From Bacteroidetes bacterium CG12_big_fil_rev_8_21_14_0_65_60_17 (GTDB lineage Bacteria; Bacteroidota; Rhodothermia; Rhodothermales; UBA10348): 64,000 bases of DNA. The position numbers and the translations under genes were made by a program. Below are positions 12,808 through 29,699 of the stretch, one piece after another. The stretch's first letter is position 1, and every line of letters begins with the position of its first letter. A model generated the notes under the pieces. It was not told the DNA's origin. It ran no database searches and saw only the letters and a program-made list of their open reading frames with translations. The stretch is from the NCBI GenBank assembly GCA_002787815.1, contig PCUY01000047.1, forward strand, positions 1 to 64,000, written 5' to 3'.

Positions 12808-14664
12808 TCAATCGAAATACATCACGAGCGAGTACACGTTGTCGGTCAGGGAGCTTTCCACGTTTTTGAAGGCGCGATGGAAAAGCGTCAGCATGGCCTT
12901 GTTTTCCACCATCACGTCCGCCACGAACCCGGCAATGCCATGCGATTTGGCCGCCTGACTGAGCCCTTCCAGCATGCTCGTGCCCAGTCCACGGCCCTGG
13001 AAATCATCTGCCACGAGAAGCGCCACCTCGGCCATGTTCGTCTGTGGATTCAGCACATACCGCCCGATGCCCACCATCCGGGACTCTTCCTGCCGCTCCC
13101 CGATCGTCGCCACCATGGCCATCTCCCGTTTGTAATCGACCCTCAGGAATTCCTGCAGCCGCTCGTGGGGCATGGATTTGAGCGAGCTGAAGAACCGGTG
13201 ATAGATGGTGTCTTCCGAAAGGGAGTAGAACATTTCCCGGAGCGCGGGTTCATCGGTCGGCTTGATGGGCCTCAGTACGGCTGTCCTGCCACCTTCCAAC
13301 TCGATGTCCTGCTCCAGGTCTACAGGGTACTCGGGCGTTGAGAATGGCATCTCGATCTGGTCCCGGTAGACCAGGCGCCGCGCCTTGGCCTCTGCCATGA
13401 GCCACGGCCGGAACTTGGGGTGTGCTATCTGGATGAGAGCCAGGGCGCGCTCGCGCACCGTCTTGCCATAGAGGTACGCCGTGCCGTACTCGGTGACCAC
13501 GTACTGCACATCGGCCCGCGAGGTTACAACGCCGGCACCCGGCTTGAGCGTCGGTACAATGCGCGACACCGTCCCGCCGGCTGCCGTGGACGGCAGCGCG
13601 ATGATGGCTTTGCCCTCATTCGCCCGTCGGGCCCCGCGCACGAAATCGACCTGTCCGCCGAACCCGCTGAAAAACATGTCCCCGAGCGAGTCGGCGCAGA
13701 CCTGACCCGTCATGTCGACCTCGAGCGCCGAATTGATGGCCACCATCCGGTCGTTGCGTGCTATCACGAACGGATCGTTGGTGTACTCGGACGGCCTGAA
13801 TTCGATCATCGGATTGTTGTCTATGAAGTCATAGAGCTTGCGCGAGCCGAGCACGAAACTGGCCACGATCTTGCCGGCATGAAGTGTCTTGCGTGAGTTT
13901 GTCACGACACCTTTCTCAATGAGCGGAATAATTCCATCCGAGAACATCTCCGTGTGGATACCCAGATCCCGGTGCTCGGTCAGAAAGTGCAACACCGCGT
14001 CGGGAATGGCCCCGATTCCAAGCTGAAGCGTTGCGCCGTTGGGGATGAGTCCGGTGATATGCCGGGCGATGGCCTTGGACAGATCGTCCGGCGCACCCTG
14101 CGGGGCTTCGAGGAGCGGATCATCGCATGGCACGAGCCGATCAATGTTGCTCACGTGGATGAAGCTGTCCCCGAGCGCCCGCGGCGCATTGCTGTTCACC
14201 TCGGCAATGACCATGCGGGCACTTTCAGCCGCCGCTTTCACGATGTCGGTGGCCACACCATAACTGCAGTATCCGTGCTCGTCGGGTTCACTGACCTGGA
14301 TGAGAGCCACATCGACGACCATGCGCCTGTTCCTGAGCAGCCGGGGTATTTCAGAAAGGAATACAGGCGTATAGTCCGCCTCTCCCCGGGCGACGGTCTT
14401 CCGGACATTGGCGCCGATGAAGAAGGCATTGTGCCGAAAGCGGGATGCTGCCTCGCCTTCCACGTACGGCGCTGCTCCCAGCGTCATGATGTGGATGACC
14501 TCGATATCACTGACCGCTCTGTTTGCGACCATGGCATGAACGAGTGACTGTGGCTCACCGGCCCCGCTGCCGATGAAAACGCGGTTGCCATTTTCCAGGT
14601 CCTCGAGTGCCCGGTCTGCGGTGCACACTTTTGCGTTGTATCGCTTTTTCCAATCTTTGCCCAT
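12808..14664 (-). CDS. acetyl-CoA hydrolase/CoA-transferase fused to a GNAT acetyltransferase domain
   Basis: Two-domain protein of about 618 residues from MGKDWKKRY at 14664; the ORF track starts 16 codons earlier. Residues ~1-430 are an acetyl-CoA hydrolase/4-hydroxybutyrate CoA-transferase unit, with VSEPDEHGYCSYG, LQLGIGAIPDAV, and the active-site Glu in VVTEYGTAYLYGK that forms the acyl-CoA anhydride/thioester. Residues ~470-618 are a GNAT domain with the acetyl-CoA loop DDFQGRGLGTSML. Fusions of this order occur in several phyla. The transferase could exchange acetyl or 4-hydroxybutyryl groups with CoA, while the GNAT part might acetylate a protein or small molecule, possibly in an acyl-CoA-sensing role (inference). 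No cofactor pathway genes are adjacent. Confidence 0.88.
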   Translation of the reverse strand: MGKDWKKRYNAKVCTADRALEDLENGNRVFIGSGAGEPQSLVHAMVANRAVSDIEVIHIMTLGAAPYVEGEAASRFRHNAFFIGANVRKTVARGEADYTPVFLSEIPRLLRNRRMVVDVALIQVSEPDEHGYCSYGVATDIVKAAAESARMVIAEVNSNAPRALGDSFIHVSNIDRLVPCDDPLLEAPQGAPDDLSKAIARHITGLIPNGATLQLGIGAIPDAVLHFLTEHRDLGIHTEMFSDGIIPLIEKGVVTNSRKTLHAGKIVASFVLGSRKLYDFIDNNPMIEFRPSEYTNDPFVIARNDRMVAINSALEVDMTGQVCADSLGDMFFSGFGGQVDFVRGARRANEGKAIIALPSTAAGGTVSRIVPTLKPGAGVVTSRADVQYVVTEYGTAYLYGKTVRERALALIQIAHPKFRPWLMAEAKARRLVYRDQIEMPFSTPEYPVDLEQDIELEGGRTAVLRPIKPTDEPALREMFYSLSEDTIYHRFFSSLKSMPHERLQEFLRVDYKREMAMVATIGERQEESRMVGIGRYVLNPQTNMAEVALLVADDFQGRGLGTSMLEGLSQAAKSHGIAGFVADVMVENKAMLTLFHRAFKNVESSLTDNVYSLVMYFD

Positions 14665-14810
14665 GATGCCAGCCGCGATGTAAGGTGTCAGTGTTGTGGA
14701 GATGGATGCCACCCAGGAAACGTACGACGCTTCCGCTGAAGGAGCTCAATCCGCGTCCTGACCCGGTTGTAGGGAATTACCGGAACTTCGGAAAGCGCTT
14801 CCGGCGACAC

Positions 14811-22195: not shown

Positions 22196-22222
22196 AAATG
22201 TAACTTCCATTGTTACATTTTT
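22196..22222. terminator. bidirectional terminator between clc and GNAT genes
   Basis: AAATGTAAC-TTCCATT-GTTACATTT is a perfect 9-base stem with a 7-base loop followed by further T residues. It lies between two convergent genes and overlaps the acetyltransferase stop codon. Both strands read U-rich on the 3' side, so it may serve both transcripts. Confidence 0.6.
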
Positions 22223-22722
22223 GACAGGCGATCGAGCGCATCTCGACTGACACGATACGTCGTCCACTCGTCCTGCGCCACTGCACCAATGGATTCGTAG
22301 AAATCAATGGCCGGCGTATTCCAGTTGAGCACAGCCCACTCCAAGCGGCCGCACCTGCGCTCCACAGCCAGATCCGCAAGCCGCGCGAGCAGCGCCTTCC
22401 CGTGCCCCTGTCCCCGCGCTTCCGGTATCACAAACAGATCTTCCAGCCAGATTCCCGGCCGCGCCAGGAACGTTGAGTAGGAATGAAAGAAAAGTGCGAA
22501 ACCGACCGGGATCCGTTCCGGTGCACGGCCCGGCTCCCCTTCCCTGAATGCCAACAGCACCTCGGCCCCCGGCCGCTCGCCGAACAATGTCTCCTCAAGC
22601 AGCGCCTCTGTGGCCACGCACTCATGACGCAATTTTTCGTAATCGGCCAGCCCCTCGATGAACTCCAGAATCAATGGGACATCATCGCGCACCGCGAAAC
22701 GGATGTGGGTGTTGTTTGTCAC
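22213..22722 (-). CDS. GNAT N-acetyltransferase (spermidine/diamine-acetyltransferase-like)
   Basis: 169-residue GNAT protein. The layout resembles SSAT-type enzymes: RFAVRDDVPLILEFIEGLADYEKL at the N-terminus, ALFFHSYSTFLARPGIWLEDLFV in the core, the acetyl-CoA loop EARGQGHGKALL, and LNWNTPAIDFYESIGA near the end. The likely substrate is a polyamine or amine (family inference). Its ATG overlaps the stop of the unrecognised small protein by ATGA, placing it third in a possible operon with the helicase. This linkage could be accidental or could make it part of an accessory module. Confidence 0.85.
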   Translation of the reverse strand: MTNNTHIRFAVRDDVPLILEFIEGLADYEKLRHECVATEALLEETLFGERPGAEVLLAFREGEPGRAPERIPVGFALFFHSYSTFLARPGIWLEDLFVIPEARGQGHGKALLARLADLAVERRCGRLEWAVLNWNTPAIDFYESIGAVAQDEWTTYRVSRDALDRLSKM

Positions 22723-23006
22723 GGGATTTCGTAGGCCAAACGGCTCTTCTCCAGAGCCTTCATCAGGTCAGTGATGTCCCGACCCATGCTATCGGTGATC
22801 TGTTCACTCGTTTCTTCCAGCCCATGATACTCATGCCACTCATGGTCCAACTCCTCGTCGTATGTGTCAAAGTGTAACTGTGATACACGTGCAATCGATA
22901 CGACAAAAAACTCCTGATCTATCAACACACTTTTCAGGCTGATCCGTAATTCTCTCAAATCATTATTTCCAGCATCTCTGTATAAATACTCGAATTCAAT
23001 ATTCAT
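22719..23006 (-). CDS. unrecognised acidic small protein downstream of DUF3427 helicase
   Basis: 95-residue protein starting MNIEFEYLYRDAGNND at 23006; the ORF-track start at 23087 is less likely. Strongly acidic middle (DTYDEELDHEWHEYHGLEETSE). No signal peptide or helix-turn-helix is evident. I recall small hypothetical proteins with similar YRDAGN and DEELDHEWHE motifs in bacterial genomes, but I cannot assign a function. It starts 50 bases after the helicase stop and overlaps the GNAT start by 4 bases. Base composition is more AT-rich than the surrounding core genes, as is the helicase, which suggests shared transfer. Confidence 0.7.
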   Translation of the reverse strand: MNIEFEYLYRDAGNNDLRELRISLKSVLIDQEFFVVSIARVSQLHFDTYDEELDHEWHEYHGLEETSEQITDSMGRDITDLMKALEKSRLAYEIP

Positions 23007-23056
23007 AACGGTACAATAACTTTGAGCGACCACCAGACACCGGTGAACGTGATTAT

Positions 23057-26000
23057 CTACCCAGTCAAACGCGCCACACGCAACCAATCAGACGGCATTG
23101 GCGTTCGAAGGCGCCAGATGACATTCATAGGCTGTTCACCAGTGTGCTCAATATACGTGACAGGTCCCAAAAAGATGTACGGCGCTGTCGTGTTATGCTC
23201 CGTCTTTTTTCGCTCTCGGATGAACAACAACGGCAACACTCCCAGTTCCTCATGCTTCCAGTGGCGCCGGCCTTTCTTCGAATCTGGCTGAGTTCGGCTC
23301 TGTGACTGCCAATGGAAATTTTGCGCTGATAGCGCAAAATCCTCGTACATCGTTGAGGGAGAGTATTCTTTTTCCGACTTTCGCAGTGTCACGAACAACA
23401 GGTTCGCACCAGTGGCCGAATGATAGACAACACCTTCTCTGGGCTGATAAAGTTTTCCGCGACGGACATCCCCAAAGGCGGCCATGACATCGTCGCGACT
23501 GTACATGCAATGCAGGGCCAGAGGGATATCTGTTGGCAGTCCCTCCACAGGTAGAGGCACGTGTGTAATACGTTCAACCAGCAGAGAAAGTACTTCTATC
23601 AGTTCACCTACGAGAGCTGGATGGTACGCGAGATCCTTCAGGTTATTTGAAATTGACCCCGCTGCACTACCACCATACAGCGTTACGATCAACATGAGCA
23701 CGCGACGCTGATCGGCCGTTGCGTATGCGTCCAGCGATGTTTTCGCCAGGTCATGACGTAACGATCGTAAAATACGAAGATACAAGTTCAAGCGTTGCGG
23801 GTCGTCTATGTACAACAACCGTTCAATGCTCCGTGCCAGCCTGTCTTCATTCGGACCTGCAGGAGGAATCTCGAACCCCGCCGCACGACGAAGGTCGCTG
23901 AAGGACCTTCCTGACTTATATACATCCTCGAGCGTGAGTCCCGATGCTTCCACGAAGTTTGCGAGAGAGGTCGCCGACCCCATTCGCTGTAGCTCAGAAA
24001 CCAACTGGCTCCTCCTCACACCGATCGCTTGGCGCACATTGTCCAATACAATTTCCCGACTTTCTCGATCCAGCTGCAGTGAACATCCCGACGGAAGCAG
24101 CGGAAAGCCAGATTCTACGTGGGATTGAACCTGTCGCCTCGAAGCACCCGTGAGCGCAGAGAATCTCAAATCGAATCGGAACTCACGCCGGGCGTTACCG
24201 ATGAAATCCAACACTGTAAGGCACTCCTTGTCATCACACAATCGCAATCCACGGCCAAGCTGCTGCAAAAAAATGGTCGCACTCTCCGTTGGACGCAGAA
24301 ACATGACGGTGTCGATTTCCGGGATATCTACCCCTTCATTGAACAAGTCGACAACGAAAATCACGCAAAGCTCTCCACGTCGCAATCGACCAACTGCAAG
24401 GTCACGTTCTTCGCGCGGCGATGTGCCGGTGAGCGCCATGGCCGGAATTCCGGCTTCGGTAAAACGTGCTGCCATGTAGCCAGCGTGTTCTACACCTACA
24501 CAGAATCCAAGCGCCCGCATCTCGGTCGGGCGTACAACGTGGTCTCGGACGGCCTGGAGTATCATATTGACGCGCAGGTCATTCCCGGTAAATACGCCTT
24601 CCAGTTCCCGTTTGTCGTAGCGCCCTCGTTTCCATGTCACGGACGTAAGGTCAACGTTGTCATGAACGCCGAAATACTGGAACGGGGCCAGCAAGCTCCG
24701 GTCTATGGCATCCCATAGACGCAACTCTGCAGCCATGTGTCCACCAAACCAGTTACTCACATTGACACCGTCCGACCTCTCGGGCGTGGCAGTCAGTCCA
24801 AGAAGTTCTTTCGGGTTGAGATGTTCGAGAAGTCGACTGTAGGTTGGGGCTTCTGCATGGTGAAACTCATCTACGATCACGACATCCCACGCCGTAGGGC
24901 TGATGTCCCCAAGATCAACACGCGAAAGAGATTGTACAGAAGCGAAAACATGGTGACCCTCCCGTGGCCGTTCGCCGTCAACAAGGAACTCACCGAAATT
25001 TGCATCCCGGAGCACATTCCGGAATACAGCCCGGCTTTGCTTCAAGATCTCTTTTCGGTGCGCGACGAACAATAACCTTGAGAGCGGACCACCCCGCACC
25101 AACCTCTTGTAATCCAGTGCTGCAATGATTGTTTTTCCAGTTCCTGTCGCTGCCACGACGAGGTTGCGGTGACGATTGTGGACGGTACGCGCCACATCCA
25201 ATCGCTCCAGTATCTCTGACTGGAACGTATACGGTCTGATATCAAAAAAGCCCGTATGCTCTTCGTCAGGGGCGCGTTCACGCTGAACAGCTGCACGAAA
25301 GGTCTCTTTGTCGTCGGGTGTGGCAGCATACCGCTCGAACTCTTCGTCATTCCAATAGCTCTCGAACGTTGCTTCAAATTTGTGCACAATTCGTGGAGCG
25401 TCGACAGCGGAAACGCGAACATTCCACTCCAGTCCATGAACCTGCGCCGCAGCTGACAAATTTGATGAACCTATGTAAGCTGTCGTAAAACCCGTCTTTC
25501 TGTGGAACAGCCAGGCCTTCGCGTGCAATCGGGTACGTCTGGCATCATATGACACTCGTACTTCGGCACCATGCTCAACCAGAAAGTCCAGGGCCCGGCG
25601 CTCGGTGGCGCCCATATAGACCGTTGTTATGACACGAACGGGCGTGCCCCGCTCAAGAACTTGACGAAGTGCATTTTTGAGCACGCGTACTCCGGACCAT
25701 TTGATGAACGAAAGCAGCATATCAACCCGATCTGCCGATATGATTTCGCGTTCGATTTCGCGTCCAATCCTGTATTCGCCCGTCGCATTTACCAGCAAGT
25801 CCGACTCCGACAGGGAAACTCCAGGACGTGGCGTTTCAGCCTGCTCCAAAAGCGGAGATTGAAGACTTATCTCCTTCAGAATTTTCGGTTGTACATGACG
25901 GCTTGTAGCCTCTACGCCGTCTACATGGTGTCCTATGAGCGAAATAACACGGTTAGCAAGGTCGAGTTGCCCCTCAGTGCCATCAACTTCCCGTACGCGG

Positions 26001-26167
26001 CGCAATGCCTTTTCCAGTTCTCCGTGCAGGTACCGAGCCAACACAACGTGCACCTCGGCCGCGTCCATCTTTTCCACGGCAATACGGAGTGTACGGGCCA
26101 GTTGCAAGAGCTCATCAAGCTCCCGTGTCATCACGGCATCATAAAGGCCCGTAGGGAGACTCGTCAT
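23057..26167 (-). CDS. PLD-nuclease / superfamily II helicase / DUF3427 protein
   Basis: 1036-residue multidomain protein. Order: an N-terminal helical region (~1-110); a phospholipase-D-like domain (~115-285) with the HKD-type motif LHAKAWLFHRKTGF and GSSNLS; an SF2 helicase (~300-690) with Walker A VAATGTGKT, DEAD-type motif VDEFHHAEAP, motif III LTATPERSDG and motif VI QLGRGLRL; and a C-terminal DUF3427 region that includes YSPSTMYEDFALSAQNFHWQSQ. Proteins of this architecture are predicted to cut and translocate on nucleic acid and often occur near mobile or defence genes. The frame is intact. GC content is lower than the neighbours. The start may be 26167 or an internal ATG 12 codons later (MTRELDELLQ). 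Phage defence is a hypothesis, not shown here. Confidence 0.88.
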   Translation of the reverse strand: MTSLPTGLYDAVMTRELDELLQLARTLRIAVEKMDAAEVHVVLARYLHGELEKALRRVREVDGTEGQLDLANRVISLIGHHVDGVEATSRHVQPKILKEISLQSPLLEQAETPRPGVSLSESDLLVNATGEYRIGREIEREIISADRVDMLLSFIKWSGVRVLKNALRQVLERGTPVRVITTVYMGATERRALDFLVEHGAEVRVSYDARRTRLHAKAWLFHRKTGFTTAYIGSSNLSAAAQVHGLEWNVRVSAVDAPRIVHKFEATFESYWNDEEFERYAATPDDKETFRAAVQRERAPDEEHTGFFDIRPYTFQSEILERLDVARTVHNRHRNLVVAATGTGKTIIAALDYKRLVRGGPLSRLLFVAHRKEILKQSRAVFRNVLRDANFGEFLVDGERPREGHHVFASVQSLSRVDLGDISPTAWDVVIVDEFHHAEAPTYSRLLEHLNPKELLGLTATPERSDGVNVSNWFGGHMAAELRLWDAIDRSLLAPFQYFGVHDNVDLTSVTWKRGRYDKRELEGVFTGNDLRVNMILQAVRDHVVRPTEMRALGFCVGVEHAGYMAARFTEAGIPAMALTGTSPREERDLAVGRLRRGELCVIFVVDLFNEGVDIPEIDTVMFLRPTESATIFLQQLGRGLRLCDDKECLTVLDFIGNARREFRFDLRFSALTGASRRQVQSHVESGFPLLPSGCSLQLDRESREIVLDNVRQAIGVRRSQLVSELQRMGSATSLANFVEASGLTLEDVYKSGRSFSDLRRAAGFEIPPAGPNEDRLARSIERLLYIDDPQRLNLYLRILRSLRHDLAKTSLDAYATADQRRVLMLIVTLYGGSAAGSISNNLKDLAYHPALVGELIEVLSLLVERITHVPLPVEGLPTDIPLALHCMYSRDDVMAAFGDVRRGKLYQPREGVVYHSATGANLLFVTLRKSEKEYSPSTMYEDFALSAQNFHWQSQSRTQPDSKKGRRHWKHEELGVLPLLFIRERKKTEHNTTAPYIFLGPVTYIEHTGEQPMNVIWRLRTPMPSDWLRVARLTG

Positions 26168-26292
26168 CCTTTCTCGGTGTATTCCATGCAGGGTGATTAC
26201 TATCCCTGTAATGGTACCCCGAAAATATTATGCACTCAATATTCCCTGCTCCACCTGACACACTTCTAAAAGGTTGATGTATAACCTCCGCT

Positions 26293-27855
26293 TCACCCCA
26301 ATCCCTCGCCGAGCTCTTCCTCCACGACTTTCTGCAACGCAGATGTGCGCACAAGTTCAACACACGGGCGCATGTCATCCTGGAAGAGGTAATCGGCTTC
26401 GCGGTGGGGCACGACGCCGCGGACGAACTGGTGGGCAATTTCGACGCCGCGGCCGGGCCGCAGCGGTGCGCGGTAGTCGAGCGCCTGGGCGGCGGTGAGC
26501 AGCTCAATGGCAAGCACGTTCTCCACATTCTCGAGCACCTGCCAGAGCTTTACAGCGCCCACGCTCCCCATGGAAACGTGATCTTCCTGACCGAGACTCG
26601 TCGGGATGGAATCGACGCTCGCCGGGTGGCAGAGCACCTTGTTCTCAGAAACCAGCGCGGCTGAAGTGTACTGCGGAATCATGAATCCGGAATTGAGGCC
26701 GGTCTCGCGCATGAGCAGTCGGGGCAGGCCGTCGTGCCCCTCGAGCAGCAGATATGTACGCCGCTCGGAGATGGACGCCAGTTCGGCGAGCGCAATCGCG
26801 GCGTAGTCCAGCACGAGAGCCAGCGGCTGGCCGTGGAAATTGCCACCGGAGAGCACATCGGGCGGGGAATCAACCCCTCCGTCGGTGCCCTTCTGGCCCG
26901 CAAACACCAGTGGATTATCCGTCACCGAGTTGATTTCCGTCTCGACCACGTGGACCGCATGGGAAAGGGTATCGCGCGATGCGCCATGCACCTGCGGAAT
27001 GCACCGCAGCGAATATGGATCCTGGACCTTCCCGCAGTGCCGGTGGCTTTCAAGAATTTCACTCTGCACGAGCAGCATCCGGATATTCCGTGCCACGGTG
27101 ACCTGCCCGTCGTGGGGACGGATGGCGTGGATGCGGGCATCGAACGGCGTTGCGCTCCCCTGCAGGGCTTCGAGGCTCATGGCGCCAAGAATATCTGCCG
27201 TGCGGACCAAACGGCGGGCCCGGTCCAGAATGCACGCCGCATAGGCCCCCATGAACTGGGTACCGTTGATGAGCGCCAACCCGTCCTTGGCCTGCAGCTC
27301 AATCGGCCCGAGCCCCTCCTCGGCGAGCACCTCGGCCGCCGCACACTCGCGCCCGTCCGGCATCATGAACGTGCCATATCCGATCAGCGGAAGCGCCATG
27401 TGGGCAAGCGGCGCCAAATCCCCACTCGCTCCGACCGATCCCCTCGATGGCACGACGGGCACCAGGTCGCGCTCGGCAAACGTCAGCAGCCGCTCAAATG
27501 TCCGGGGAGATACGCCGGAAAAGCCCTGCCCCAGCGCCACGATCTTGAGATCGAGCATGAGGCGCGCCACGCTGCGCGGAATGGCCGCGCCCACGCCCAC
27601 GGCATGACTGAGCAGCAGGTTGCGCTGCAGATCCGCAAGATGCTCGTCCGGCACGCGCGTCGAGGCCAGCTTTCCGAAGCCGGTGTTGACGCCGTACGTG
27701 GCGCCACCACCGGCAATGGCGTCCTCCAACAGGCGGCGCGAGCGGACCACCCGCGAGGCATCCGAGCGGAGGGCCGCGAGCGCCGCATGCAGGTCGTCAT
27801 AAAGCGTGGCGATCCGGATAGGCGGGTGACTGGGCATATGCTCCTTCATATTCAT
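26293..27855 (-). CDS. hutH: histidine ammonia-lyase
   Basis: Converts L-histidine to urocanate plus ammonia, the first step of histidine degradation. The 520-residue protein has the MIO-forming tripeptide in GSVGASGDLAPLAHM, the substrate/active-site segments GVNTGFGKL and QDPYSLRC, and a full-length C-terminus. The start at 27855 (MNMKEHMPSHPP) follows AGGAG with five bases to the ATG. A second site AAGGAG-CAT precedes an in-frame ATG at 27837, so two starts are possible. hutU, the next enzyme, is upstream on the same strand but separated by 1.85 kb of decayed ATPase genes. hutI and hutG are not in the window. Confidence 0.96.
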   Translation of the reverse strand: MNMKEHMPSHPPIRIATLYDDLHAALAALRSDASRVVRSRRLLEDAIAGGGATYGVNTGFGKLASTRVPDEHLADLQRNLLLSHAVGVGAAIPRSVARLMLDLKIVALGQGFSGVSPRTFERLLTFAERDLVPVVPSRGSVGASGDLAPLAHMALPLIGYGTFMMPDGRECAAAEVLAEEGLGPIELQAKDGLALINGTQFMGAYAACILDRARRLVRTADILGAMSLEALQGSATPFDARIHAIRPHDGQVTVARNIRMLLVQSEILESHRHCGKVQDPYSLRCIPQVHGASRDTLSHAVHVVETEINSVTDNPLVFAGQKGTDGGVDSPPDVLSGGNFHGQPLALVLDYAAIALAELASISERRTYLLLEGHDGLPRLLMRETGLNSGFMIPQYTSAALVSENKVLCHPASVDSIPTSLGQEDHVSMGSVGAVKLWQVLENVENVLAIELLTAAQALDYRAPLRPGRGVEIAHQFVRGVVPHREADYLFQDDMRPCVELVRTSALQKVVEEELGEGLG

Positions 27856-27883: not shown

Positions 27884-28983
27884 TCATGGCCCAAACAGTG
27901 CTGCCGGGACGACAGCTATACCATCTTTTCTCCTATACGCGTATTGACCTGTGTTGATCACGACTGCATCCAACATGTCATTTCCGGCTTTGGTTTTCAG
28001 CCATTTCAGATGGGCAACATCTGCATCCGTGATGGTGGATGCCAGCCTAACCTCCATACCGAGGAATCTACCGTCGGCCCGTTCGACAATAATGTCCACT
28101 TCGTGTCGTTCGCCCATAGTTCTCATGTGGTAGATTCTCGCCTCGGCAGCCTGGGCATAGACGCGTACCGATTGGACGACAAGACTTTCAAAAAGATGAC
28201 CCAGCAGGTTACCATTCCTTGGAACATTGTGCACGGTCGGCGCTCCTTCCAGAAGGGCCCCTGCGTCTATACCAAGCAGTCTGGCCGCAAGTGCAGGGTC
28301 GGCGGGTTGATGCTTGGGAGGTCGTGTCAGTCGTGACAGATAATTCCGTGCCGGAATCCAGGCCGGCACACCATCACTCCCTGTTCTTCAAAATCGCGAT
28401 CCACAATGCGGTCCAGGTAACCGCCGAGCTGAGCTGTTCGGACACGCCCCGACAGGGATCTGATACCGGGAAATCCGGACTCCAGAATCAGGTCCACATA
28501 GGCACCAAGATCAAGACCGGCGTGGCCCCTCACCTCGACCATCTCATGGCCCGTCAACATGGTTGCGAGCGACACCGGGAGTGCATGGTTCACACGCTCG
28601 GCTATAGACATCGGCCGCATGCGCACACGGACAATTCGCCCTGCTCCGGAGTGCAACGTCGCTGTCGTTCCTGCCGATCCCGCCAGAATAAACTGGCCGG
28701 GTGTCGGATTATCGTCAACAGCTCTGCGAACCACCTCCCAGACGGAAGGCACGCGTTGCCATTCGTCTACGAGCAGTGGCTTTGGCATGCTCCGGATCAT
28801 CTGCGGATCGGCCGCTACGATGGAACGCTGGGATTCATTGTCAAGATTCAGAGTGTGCGCCACCCGGCGGCGTGCCGTTTCCGTCTTCCCAACAGCCTTT
28901 GGCCCGTCAAGCGAGATGGCAGCGATCCCTTCAAAAAGCTCATCTATTTCCGCATCCACAGTGCGTGGAACATACGATTCCAT
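27884..28983 (-). pseudogene. DUF4143-type AAA ATPase, broken by internal deletion and frameshift
   Basis: Two ORFs in different frames together cover one protein. The upstream part (28327-28983) has MESYVPRTVDAEID, Walker A DGPKAVGKTETA and Walker B LLVDEWQRVPS, and runs to DFEEQGVMV. The downstream part (27884-28369) resumes at PAWIPARNYLSRL with the C-terminal DUF4143 half, including HEVDIIVERADG. Related ATPases carry roughly 50-60 further residues between these points, so a segment has been lost at about 28360-28375 and the frame shifted. In the C-terminal nuclease-like motif the usual EVK appears as EVR. Intact relatives are ~420-residue ATPases of unknown role. The gene is very probably non-functional. 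Confidence 0.8.
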
Positions 28984-29124: not shown

Positions 29125-29699
29125 ATGCCACATGATCCAATGTCCGCCTCACGGAGCACACCCATGATACGTCGCACCATGGAAGATGCGCTTTTGAACC
29201 GTGCTCAGCTCTATCCTGTTGTGACCATTACCGGTCCCCGTCAAAGTGGAAAGTCCACGATCTGTCGCAGCGTGTTTCCCGATAAACCGTATGTGAATCT
29301 TGAGGCGCCCGATATCCGGATGTTTGCCCATGACGATCCACGGGGCTTTCTGGCTGCGTATCCTGACGGTGCCATCCTGGATGAAATCCAGCGTGCTCCT
29401 GATCTGGTATCCGTGAGGAGGCGCACCTTCATACCCATCCACTCCGGGGCGCACTCTTCGAGAATTGGGTCGTGTCGGAAGTTGTAAAGCTCCACGCGAA
29501 CCGGGGAACGGGTTGCGACATATTGTTCTACAGGGACTCAAACGGCGTGGAAGTTGACCTCATACTGACAAGGGGCCAGACTCGACACATCCTGGAAGCC
29601 AAATCCGGTGTGACATTCCACGGAGACATGGACCAGACGCGCTCCCGTTACGACGTGGTATCCTGGACCCGAATGGGCGAATATATCGGCGCCGTATAG
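29125..29699 (+). pseudogene. second DUF4143-type AAA ATPase, large internal deletion
   Basis: The N-terminal piece (MIRRTMEDALLNRAQ from 29164, Walker A GPRQSGKST, Walker B AILDEIQRAPDL) is followed after about 29410 by a different frame. That frame reads HPLRGALFENWVVSEVVKL and continues to the C-terminal YRDSNGVEVDLIL and ILEAKSG of the same family. Intact members are ~380-400 residues; here roughly half is missing between the Walker B region and HPLRGALFENW, and the pieces are out of frame. The first frame stops at 29487. The relic ends 9 bases from the hutU stop codon. It is of a different subfamily from the neighbouring minus-strand relic, so two separate genes decayed at this site. Confidence 0.82.

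What the first reader, a model, noticed from the sequence alone, without database searches (positions are those of the whole stretch)
22213..26167. Candidate accessory (possibly defence) operon: PLD-helicase-DUF3427 protein, acidic 95-residue protein and GNAT enzyme
Three same-strand genes follow one another with a 50-base gap and then an ATGA overlap. The first encodes an intact 1036-residue protein joining a PLD-type nuclease motif, an SF2 helicase and DUF3427. Fused nuclease-helicases are typical of anti-phage systems. The second is an unrecognised acidic protein and the third a GNAT, giving a nuclease-helicase/small factor/modifier combination I do not know as a named system. The stretch looks more AT-rich than its neighbours, suggesting transfer.
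Basis: partly seen in the sequence, partly recalled or inferred. Interest (0 to 1): 0.6.

Follow-up and report, generated by a model that had tools for sequence, protein, structure and literature searches.

The report
SauUSI-like restriction cassette with small protein
The long gene encodes a known kind of bacterial enzyme that shreds foreign DNA carrying methylated cytosine; it shares a swapped-in cassette with a small acidic protein whose unnamed family keeps turning up beside unrelated DNA-cutting defence genes, while the third gene (GNAT) is just a resident neighbour.

Summary
The three genes are real (the overlap is GTGA, not ATGA), but they are not one system. [quoted passage not shown] The GNAT is a resident gene: congeners keep it beside the ClC gene without the helicase, and DNA homology with one of them breaks inside GNAT codon 6 and resumes exactly at the hutH stop. 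The swapped 3.6-kb unit holds only the helicase and the 95-aa protein; that relative carries an EcoRII-type/Vsr/m5C-methylase cassette there instead. The 95-aa protein, unmatched in Pfam, NCBIfam, PADLOC and PHROGs, belongs to an acidic small-protein family. In all 19 genomes examined its gene adjoins a restriction or defence nuclease: HNH (10), PDC-S41 Schlafen-type helicase (7), SauUSI-like (2, in separate clades). It also occurs in gut-phage contigs. Its function is untested; I favour a nuclease modulator. The helicase is a new member of a known kind; the small-protein link appears unreported.

The parts
23057..26167 (-). [quoted passage not shown]
   Evidence: Pfam PLDc_2, ResIII, Helicase_C, DUF3427; PADLOC PDLC03659 mREase_IV E 6.7e-275 over residues 112-1028; PDB 7clg (SauUSI) E 4.2e-81
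25352..25681 (-). PLD nuclease domain (residues 163-272): H215-x-K217, GSSN 233-236, E247
   Evidence: PLDc_2 E 3.3e-11; motif positions; aligned with SauUSI HAK, GSSN and E. The E of SauUSI's H(X)K(X)4E is H222 here
24239..25237 (-). SF2 helicase-like ATPase (residues 311-643): Walker A ATGTGKT 340-346, DEFHH 433, TATPE 459, QQLGRGLR 635-642
   Evidence: ResIII and Helicase_C; motif positions
23084..23656 (-). DUF3427 region (residues 838-1028) with the SRA-like modified-base reader; F925, D943 and W953 align with SauUSI F841, D858 and W868
   Evidence: DUF3427 E 1.4e-24; AF2 model pLDDT 80.7; Foldseek best matches SauUSI, SUVH6, MspJI, KRYPTONITE, AbaSI, TagI; residue mapping
22719..23006 (-). 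95-aa acidic protein, member of an unnamed small-protein family (YLYRDxxN...FF...DHxxHE), lacking about 14 conserved residues after N14
   Evidence: homologues found with P0002 alone; alignments; family members adjoin nuclease genes
22707..26292 (.). Exchanged unit: block without DNA homology to the sister genome G003, from within GNAT codon 6 to the hutH stop codon
   Evidence: blastn: homology ends at 22706 and resumes at 26293; G003 holds EcoRII-C/Vsr/m5C-MTase genes in the same place
22213..22722 (-). Resident GNAT of the thialysine/diamine acetyltransferase group; NOT part of the system; its GTG start overlaps the stop of the small gene
   Evidence: PDB 2fe7 and 12jc E about 1e-44; orthologues without helicase in G002 and G003; native-like GC3 0.69

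Best explanation
A two-gene restriction cassette sits between the resident GNAT and hutH. Gene 1 is a SauUSI-like type IV restriction enzyme. Its C-terminal SRA-like domain is predicted to flip out 5-methyl- or 5-hydroxymethylcytosine in incoming DNA; this switches on the SF2 ATPase, which translocates along DNA, and the dimerised PLD nuclease then cuts, as worked out for SauUSI. Gene 2 encodes a small acidic protein whose family is repeatedly encoded beside unrelated restriction or defence nucleases. I infer that it acts on the partner nuclease as a modulator, most likely restraining or timing it. The GNAT is a bystander. Shown here by computation: domain architecture, SRA-like model, cassette boundaries, site swapping with an m5C restriction-modification cassette in a relative, and small-protein/nuclease linkage. 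Inferred: substrate, cleavage, and the role of the small protein.
For: Enzyme: PADLOC mREase_IV E 6.7e-275; SauUSI 7clg as best solved relative; TRD model matches SauUSI, SUVH6, MspJI, KRYPTONITE, AbaSI and TagI; pocket residues F, D and W aligned; mechanism from PMC7913695. No PF00145 m5C methylase found in its own genome. Cassette: sharp homology breaks and alternative content, with low GC3 inside and native GC3 outside. Small protein: 19 of 19 host genomes have a nuclease as neighbour, and one viral contig does too; two independent pairings with SauUSI-like helicases; all 14 members computed are acidic.
Against: SauUSI works as a single polypeptide (PMC3874153), and most SauUSI-like loci lack the small gene, so it cannot be essential to this enzyme type. 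P0002 lacks about 14 residues conserved in the family and could be decaying. In G001 the same site holds the helicase without the small gene. In most PDC-S41 loci the small gene is convergent with the nuclease rather than co-transcribed. m5C methylases are not depleted in helicase-bearing relatives (4 of 9 against 30 of 91, p=0.48). The best structure attempt for P0002 failed (pLDDT 45).
Confidence: 0.6

Rival explanations
1. The small protein is a positive component (sensor, specificity or activator subunit) needed for full defence by its nuclease partner.
For: Same linkage data; small gene directly abutting or overlapping the nuclease gene in L092, L093, L104 and L150.
Against: Partners share no common nuclease fold (HNH, PLD, DUF3883/PDC-S36, PDC-S41); most SauUSI-like loci do without it; phage contigs carry it away from recognised nucleases.
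Confidence: 0.25
2. The small gene is a passenger or decaying remnant without a function in this cassette.
For: About 14 conserved residues missing; no copy in G001; truncated copy in G002; orphan at the level of the order when P0002 alone is the query.
Against: The frame is open with invariant family residues kept (Y7, Y9, R10, D11, N14, F34, D54, E59), and it is coupled to nuclease genes everywhere it was found in host genomes.
Confidence: 0.25
3. The long protein is a RadD/YejH-like repair helicase rather than a restriction enzyme.
For: The SF2 core also matches RadD (NCBIfam E 1e-28, far below its cut-off of 720 bits).
Against: PLD nuclease, coupler and SRA-like reader present; full-length match to mREase_IV with 912 bits; TRD fold matches; patchy distribution: 8 of 99 relatives have a full or near-full-length copy.
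Confidence: 0.03
4. One reading: one three-gene defence operon of nuclease-helicase, small factor and GNAT modifier.
For: Gene order and the 4-base overlap.
Against: GNAT conserved beside ClC without helicase in G002 and G003; homology break inside the GNAT start; GNAT homologues in 56 of 60 relatives; not beside any other helicase locus.
Confidence: 0.03

Closest known systems
[quoted passage not shown]
   Same: PLD nuclease, SF2 ATPase, coupler and SRA-like TRD in one chain; HxK, GSSN and E of the PLD site; F, D and W of the 5mC pocket
   Different: About 80 residues longer with an extra N-terminal stretch; E of H(X)K(X)4E is H222; Y831 and M829 positions not conserved in the pairwise alignment; sequence similarity of the TRD is weak
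PADLOC mREase_IV model PDLC03659
   Same: Full-length match, residues 112-1028
   Different: The N-terminal 111 residues are not covered by the model
EcoRII-type RM with Vsr at the same site in G003 (EcoRII-C, Vsr, PF00145)
   Same: Occupies the same GNAT/hutH site; also concerns 5-methylcytosine
   Different: Makes the mark and cuts unmarked DNA, the opposite logic to a type IV enzyme
P. carotovorum PcaRCI/PcaRCII conflict (PMC8989522)
   Same: Precedent for competition between an RM system and a methylation-dependent endonuclease
   Different: There both co-exist through silencing; here the two cassettes are in different genomes

Membership tests
SauUSI-like type IV restriction enzyme | Single chain with PLD nuclease, SF2 ATPase and DUF3427 in that order | tested here: met
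SauUSI-like type IV restriction enzyme | PLD site HxK with downstream GSSN and E | tested here: met
   H215, K217, GSSN233, E247
SauUSI itself (orthologue) | E of SauUSI's H(X)K(X)4E motif (I do not know that it is required; recorded as a difference from SauUSI itself) | tested here: not met
   H222 in its place; also H in the homologue L117. I therefore file it as SauUSI-like, not as a SauUSI orthologue
SauUSI-like type IV restriction enzyme | SRA-fold target recognition domain at the C-terminus | tested here: met
   AF2 model pLDDT 80.7; Foldseek E 2e-6 to 7clg, then SUVH6, MspJI, AbaSI and TagI
SauUSI-like type IV restriction enzyme | Walker A, DExH and arginine-finger motifs of the ATPase | tested here: met
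   ATGTGKT, DEFHH, QQLGRGLR
SauUSI-like type IV restriction enzyme | No cognate methylase beside it | tested here: met
   ORFs around it; no PF00145 match in G000, a 95.5% complete genome
SauUSI-like type IV restriction enzyme | ATP-dependent cleavage of m5C/hm5C DNA; dimerisation | not testable with these tools
   needs biochemistry
RadD repair helicase | Score over the NCBIfam RadD cut-off (720 bits) | tested here: not met
   100 bits
Three-gene system with GNAT | Conserved synteny of the GNAT with the helicase | tested here: not met
   absent from the helicase loci fetched; present without helicase in G002 and G003
Unnamed small acidic nuclease-linked family | YLYRD...N...FF...D...E signature and significant similarity | tested here: met
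   about 14 residues missing
Unnamed small acidic nuclease-linked family | Gene adjoins a restriction or defence nuclease gene | tested here: met
   window and all 18 other host genomes

The most novel reading that the evidence does not exclude
The small acidic family is a shared nuclease-control protein: hosts pair it with structurally unrelated restriction/defence nucleases (HNH, SauUSI-like, PDC-S41, PDC-S36) to hold them in check, and phages carry stand-alone copies as anti-restriction proteins, possibly by mimicking DNA.
Probability: 0.18. Interest if true: 0.75.

Novelty: new variant of a known kind. Interest (0 to 1): 0.45.

Why it matters
The enzyme itself adds a member to a known class of barriers against modified phage DNA and gene transfer. 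Two things go further. First, one chromosomal site in one genus holds a 5mC-cutting enzyme in two species and a 5mC-making RM cassette in another, a natural example of swapping opposed defences. Second, a small acidic protein family without any model in Pfam, NCBIfam, PADLOC or PHROGs marks loci of at least four unrelated defence nucleases and also occurs in phage contigs. If it controls nucleases it would be a common regulator or anti-restriction factor; in any case it is a usable marker for finding defence loci.

Tried and rejected
Three-gene operon with GNAT: rejected. RadD repair helicase: rejected. P0002 in plasmids and phages with P0002 as query: no match; with a relative as query, one plasmid and one phage. 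First viral scan with P0002 leading the alignment: none confirmed; with another leading sequence, seven contigs. Genome-wide exclusion of m5C methylases by SauUSI-like enzymes: not supported. P0002 structure: model unusable (pLDDT 45), so no fold search was made with it. No tRNA or Rfam family near the site; no terminal repeats that would show an integration mechanism. Widening the small-family search to other phyla failed because centres must be G handles. Papers: none found joining SauUSI with NUDIX, none naming PDC-S41 or PDC-S36.
Full report
What is there. On the minus strand lie a 1036-aa gene (26167-23057), a 95-aa gene (23006-22719) and a 169-aa gene (22722-22213). The gap of 50 bases is right; the overlap is GTGA, because the GNAT starts with GTG. 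The window is in contig 21 of a 2.9-Mb genome, 95.5% complete, where the large gene is single-copy.

The large protein. Pfam finds PLDc_2, ResIII, Helicase_C and DUF3427. PADLOC's mREase_IV model PDLC03659 matches residues 112-1028 with E 6.7e-275, and the best solved relative is 7clg, which is SauUSI. RadD and type I R-subunits match only the helicase core, far under their cut-offs. The catalytic residues of the PLD site and the ATPase motifs are present; the glutamate of SauUSI's H(X)K(X)4E motif is histidine here. A model of the C-terminal 241 residues (pLDDT 80.7) matches SauUSI, SUVH6, MspJI, KRYPTONITE, AbaSI and TagI, proteins that carry SRA-type readers of 5mC or 5hmC. SauUSI pocket residues F841, D858 and W868 align with F925, D943 and W953; Y831 aligns with V913. 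SauUSI recognises 5mC/5hmC with its SRA domain, which activates the ATPase; it translocates and shreds DNA between sites with a PLD dimer (PMC7913695), and a single chain suffices (PMC3874153). I take the same mechanism for this protein; substrate and activity are inferred.

The GNAT is a bystander. It belongs with thialysine/diamine acetyltransferases (2fe7, 12jc). Congeners G002 and G003 have orthologues of 76-83% identity beside the ClC gene, and neither has the helicase. Aligned with G003, DNA homology runs to window 22706, inside GNAT codon 6, and resumes at 26293, at the hutH stop codon. The block between is therefore the exchanged unit: the helicase, the small gene and the GNAT start. 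GC3 agrees: helicase 0.55, small 0.53, GNAT 0.69, most other neighbours 0.66-0.77.

The site swaps cassettes. In G003 the same interval holds an EcoRII-C endonuclease, a Vsr endonuclease and a PF00145 m5C methylase, also low in GC3. In G001, a third congener, a helicase of 67% identity lies next to hutH at the same junction, without small gene or GNAT. The helicase tree groups the window copy with G001 and then G012 of the same family, so the enzyme may be old in this lineage and have been replaced in G003; the direction is not shown. The window's genome has no PF00145 match, but across 100 genomes the two are not mutually exclusive (p=0.48), so I make no general claim of exclusion. A documented conflict between an RM system and a methylation-dependent endonuclease exists in Pectobacterium (PMC8989522).

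The small protein. It has no Pfam, PADLOC, NCBIfam or PHROG family, nor do the relatives scanned against these libraries, apart from sub-threshold hits. With P0002 alone as query, 395 genomes of the phylum gave relatives down to E 2e-9. With profiles, 18 genomes plus G002 carry one. Note that these profiles include P0002, so their E-values for the window are circular; one search is the independent evidence. Neighbours in the 19 genomes: an HNH_2 endonuclease in ten (G294, G423, G143, G100, G219, G134, G341, G334, G149 with a broken nuclease, and G002, where a truncated small gene follows the nuclease stop codon directly); a Schlafen-group-3 helicase that PADLOC lists as PDC-S41 in seven; SauUSI-like helicases in two (window, G240). 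PADLOC and Pfam scans were made on examples; the remaining HNH and PDC-S41 cases were recognised by their close sequence similarity to the scanned ones. In viral contig L130 it follows a PDC-S36 gene by 11 bases. In gut-phage contigs L131-L136 I recognised no large nuclease beside it (part of that output was cut). The G240 helicase is 42% identical to the window's over residues 3-789, is cut near a contig end, and sits in another fully supported clade whose other members lack the small gene: two independent pairings.

What the small protein may do. All 14 members computed are acidic, pI 4.1-5.0. Because its partners do not share a nuclease fold, I think it acts as a modulator, perhaps an inhibitor with DNA-like charge, rather than a dedicated subunit; this is inference. 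Against it: most SauUSI-like loci lack it, P0002 misses about 14 conserved residues, and in most PDC-S41 loci it is convergent with its neighbour. The structure attempt was not usable.

Verdict. The helicase is a new member of a known kind. The recurrent link of an unmodelled acidic small family to unrelated defence nucleases is the part worth following up; I found no paper describing it, but my literature search was limited to open papers and few terms.

Noticed in passing
L151 1055-1504, L152 4605-5054, L153 1055-1504, L159 2583-3068, L169 1136-1585, L165 944-1336, L009 7603-8004, L002 5366-5767, L007 3332-3748, L015 6905-7309: A NUDIX/MutT-like gene (five scanned copies match PADLOC PDC-S07) directly adjoins or overlaps SauUSI-like helicase genes in several lineages; a relative of NudG-type pyrimidine dNTPases could clear 5-methyl-dCTP and so protect host DNA from its own enzyme.
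   Followed up: partly
L074 7775-10812 (G003): EcoRII-type endonuclease, Vsr and m5C methylase occupy the site that holds the type IV enzyme in the window's genome: two opposed 5mC-based defences at one locus.
   Followed up: yes
L131-L136 (gut-phage contigs), for example L135 5013-5357: Stand-alone copies of the small acidic family in phage contigs, in stretches of small unknown genes.
   Followed up: partly
window 27884-28983 and 29125-29699: Two split AAA_14/DUF4143 ATPase genes, in opposite directions, between hutH and hutU; both look broken into frames.
   Followed up: no
L008 5106-7526 and 7526-7849: A second, shorter PLD-helicase and a MazG-like 107-aa gene lie divergently beside the SauUSI-like gene in Allobacillus.
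   Followed up: no
L029 / L080 (G071): A SauUSI-like helicase gene interrupted by a single TAG stop.
   Followed up: no
window 12808-14712: Acetyl-CoA hydrolase/transferase fused to a C-terminal GNAT domain.
   Followed up: no
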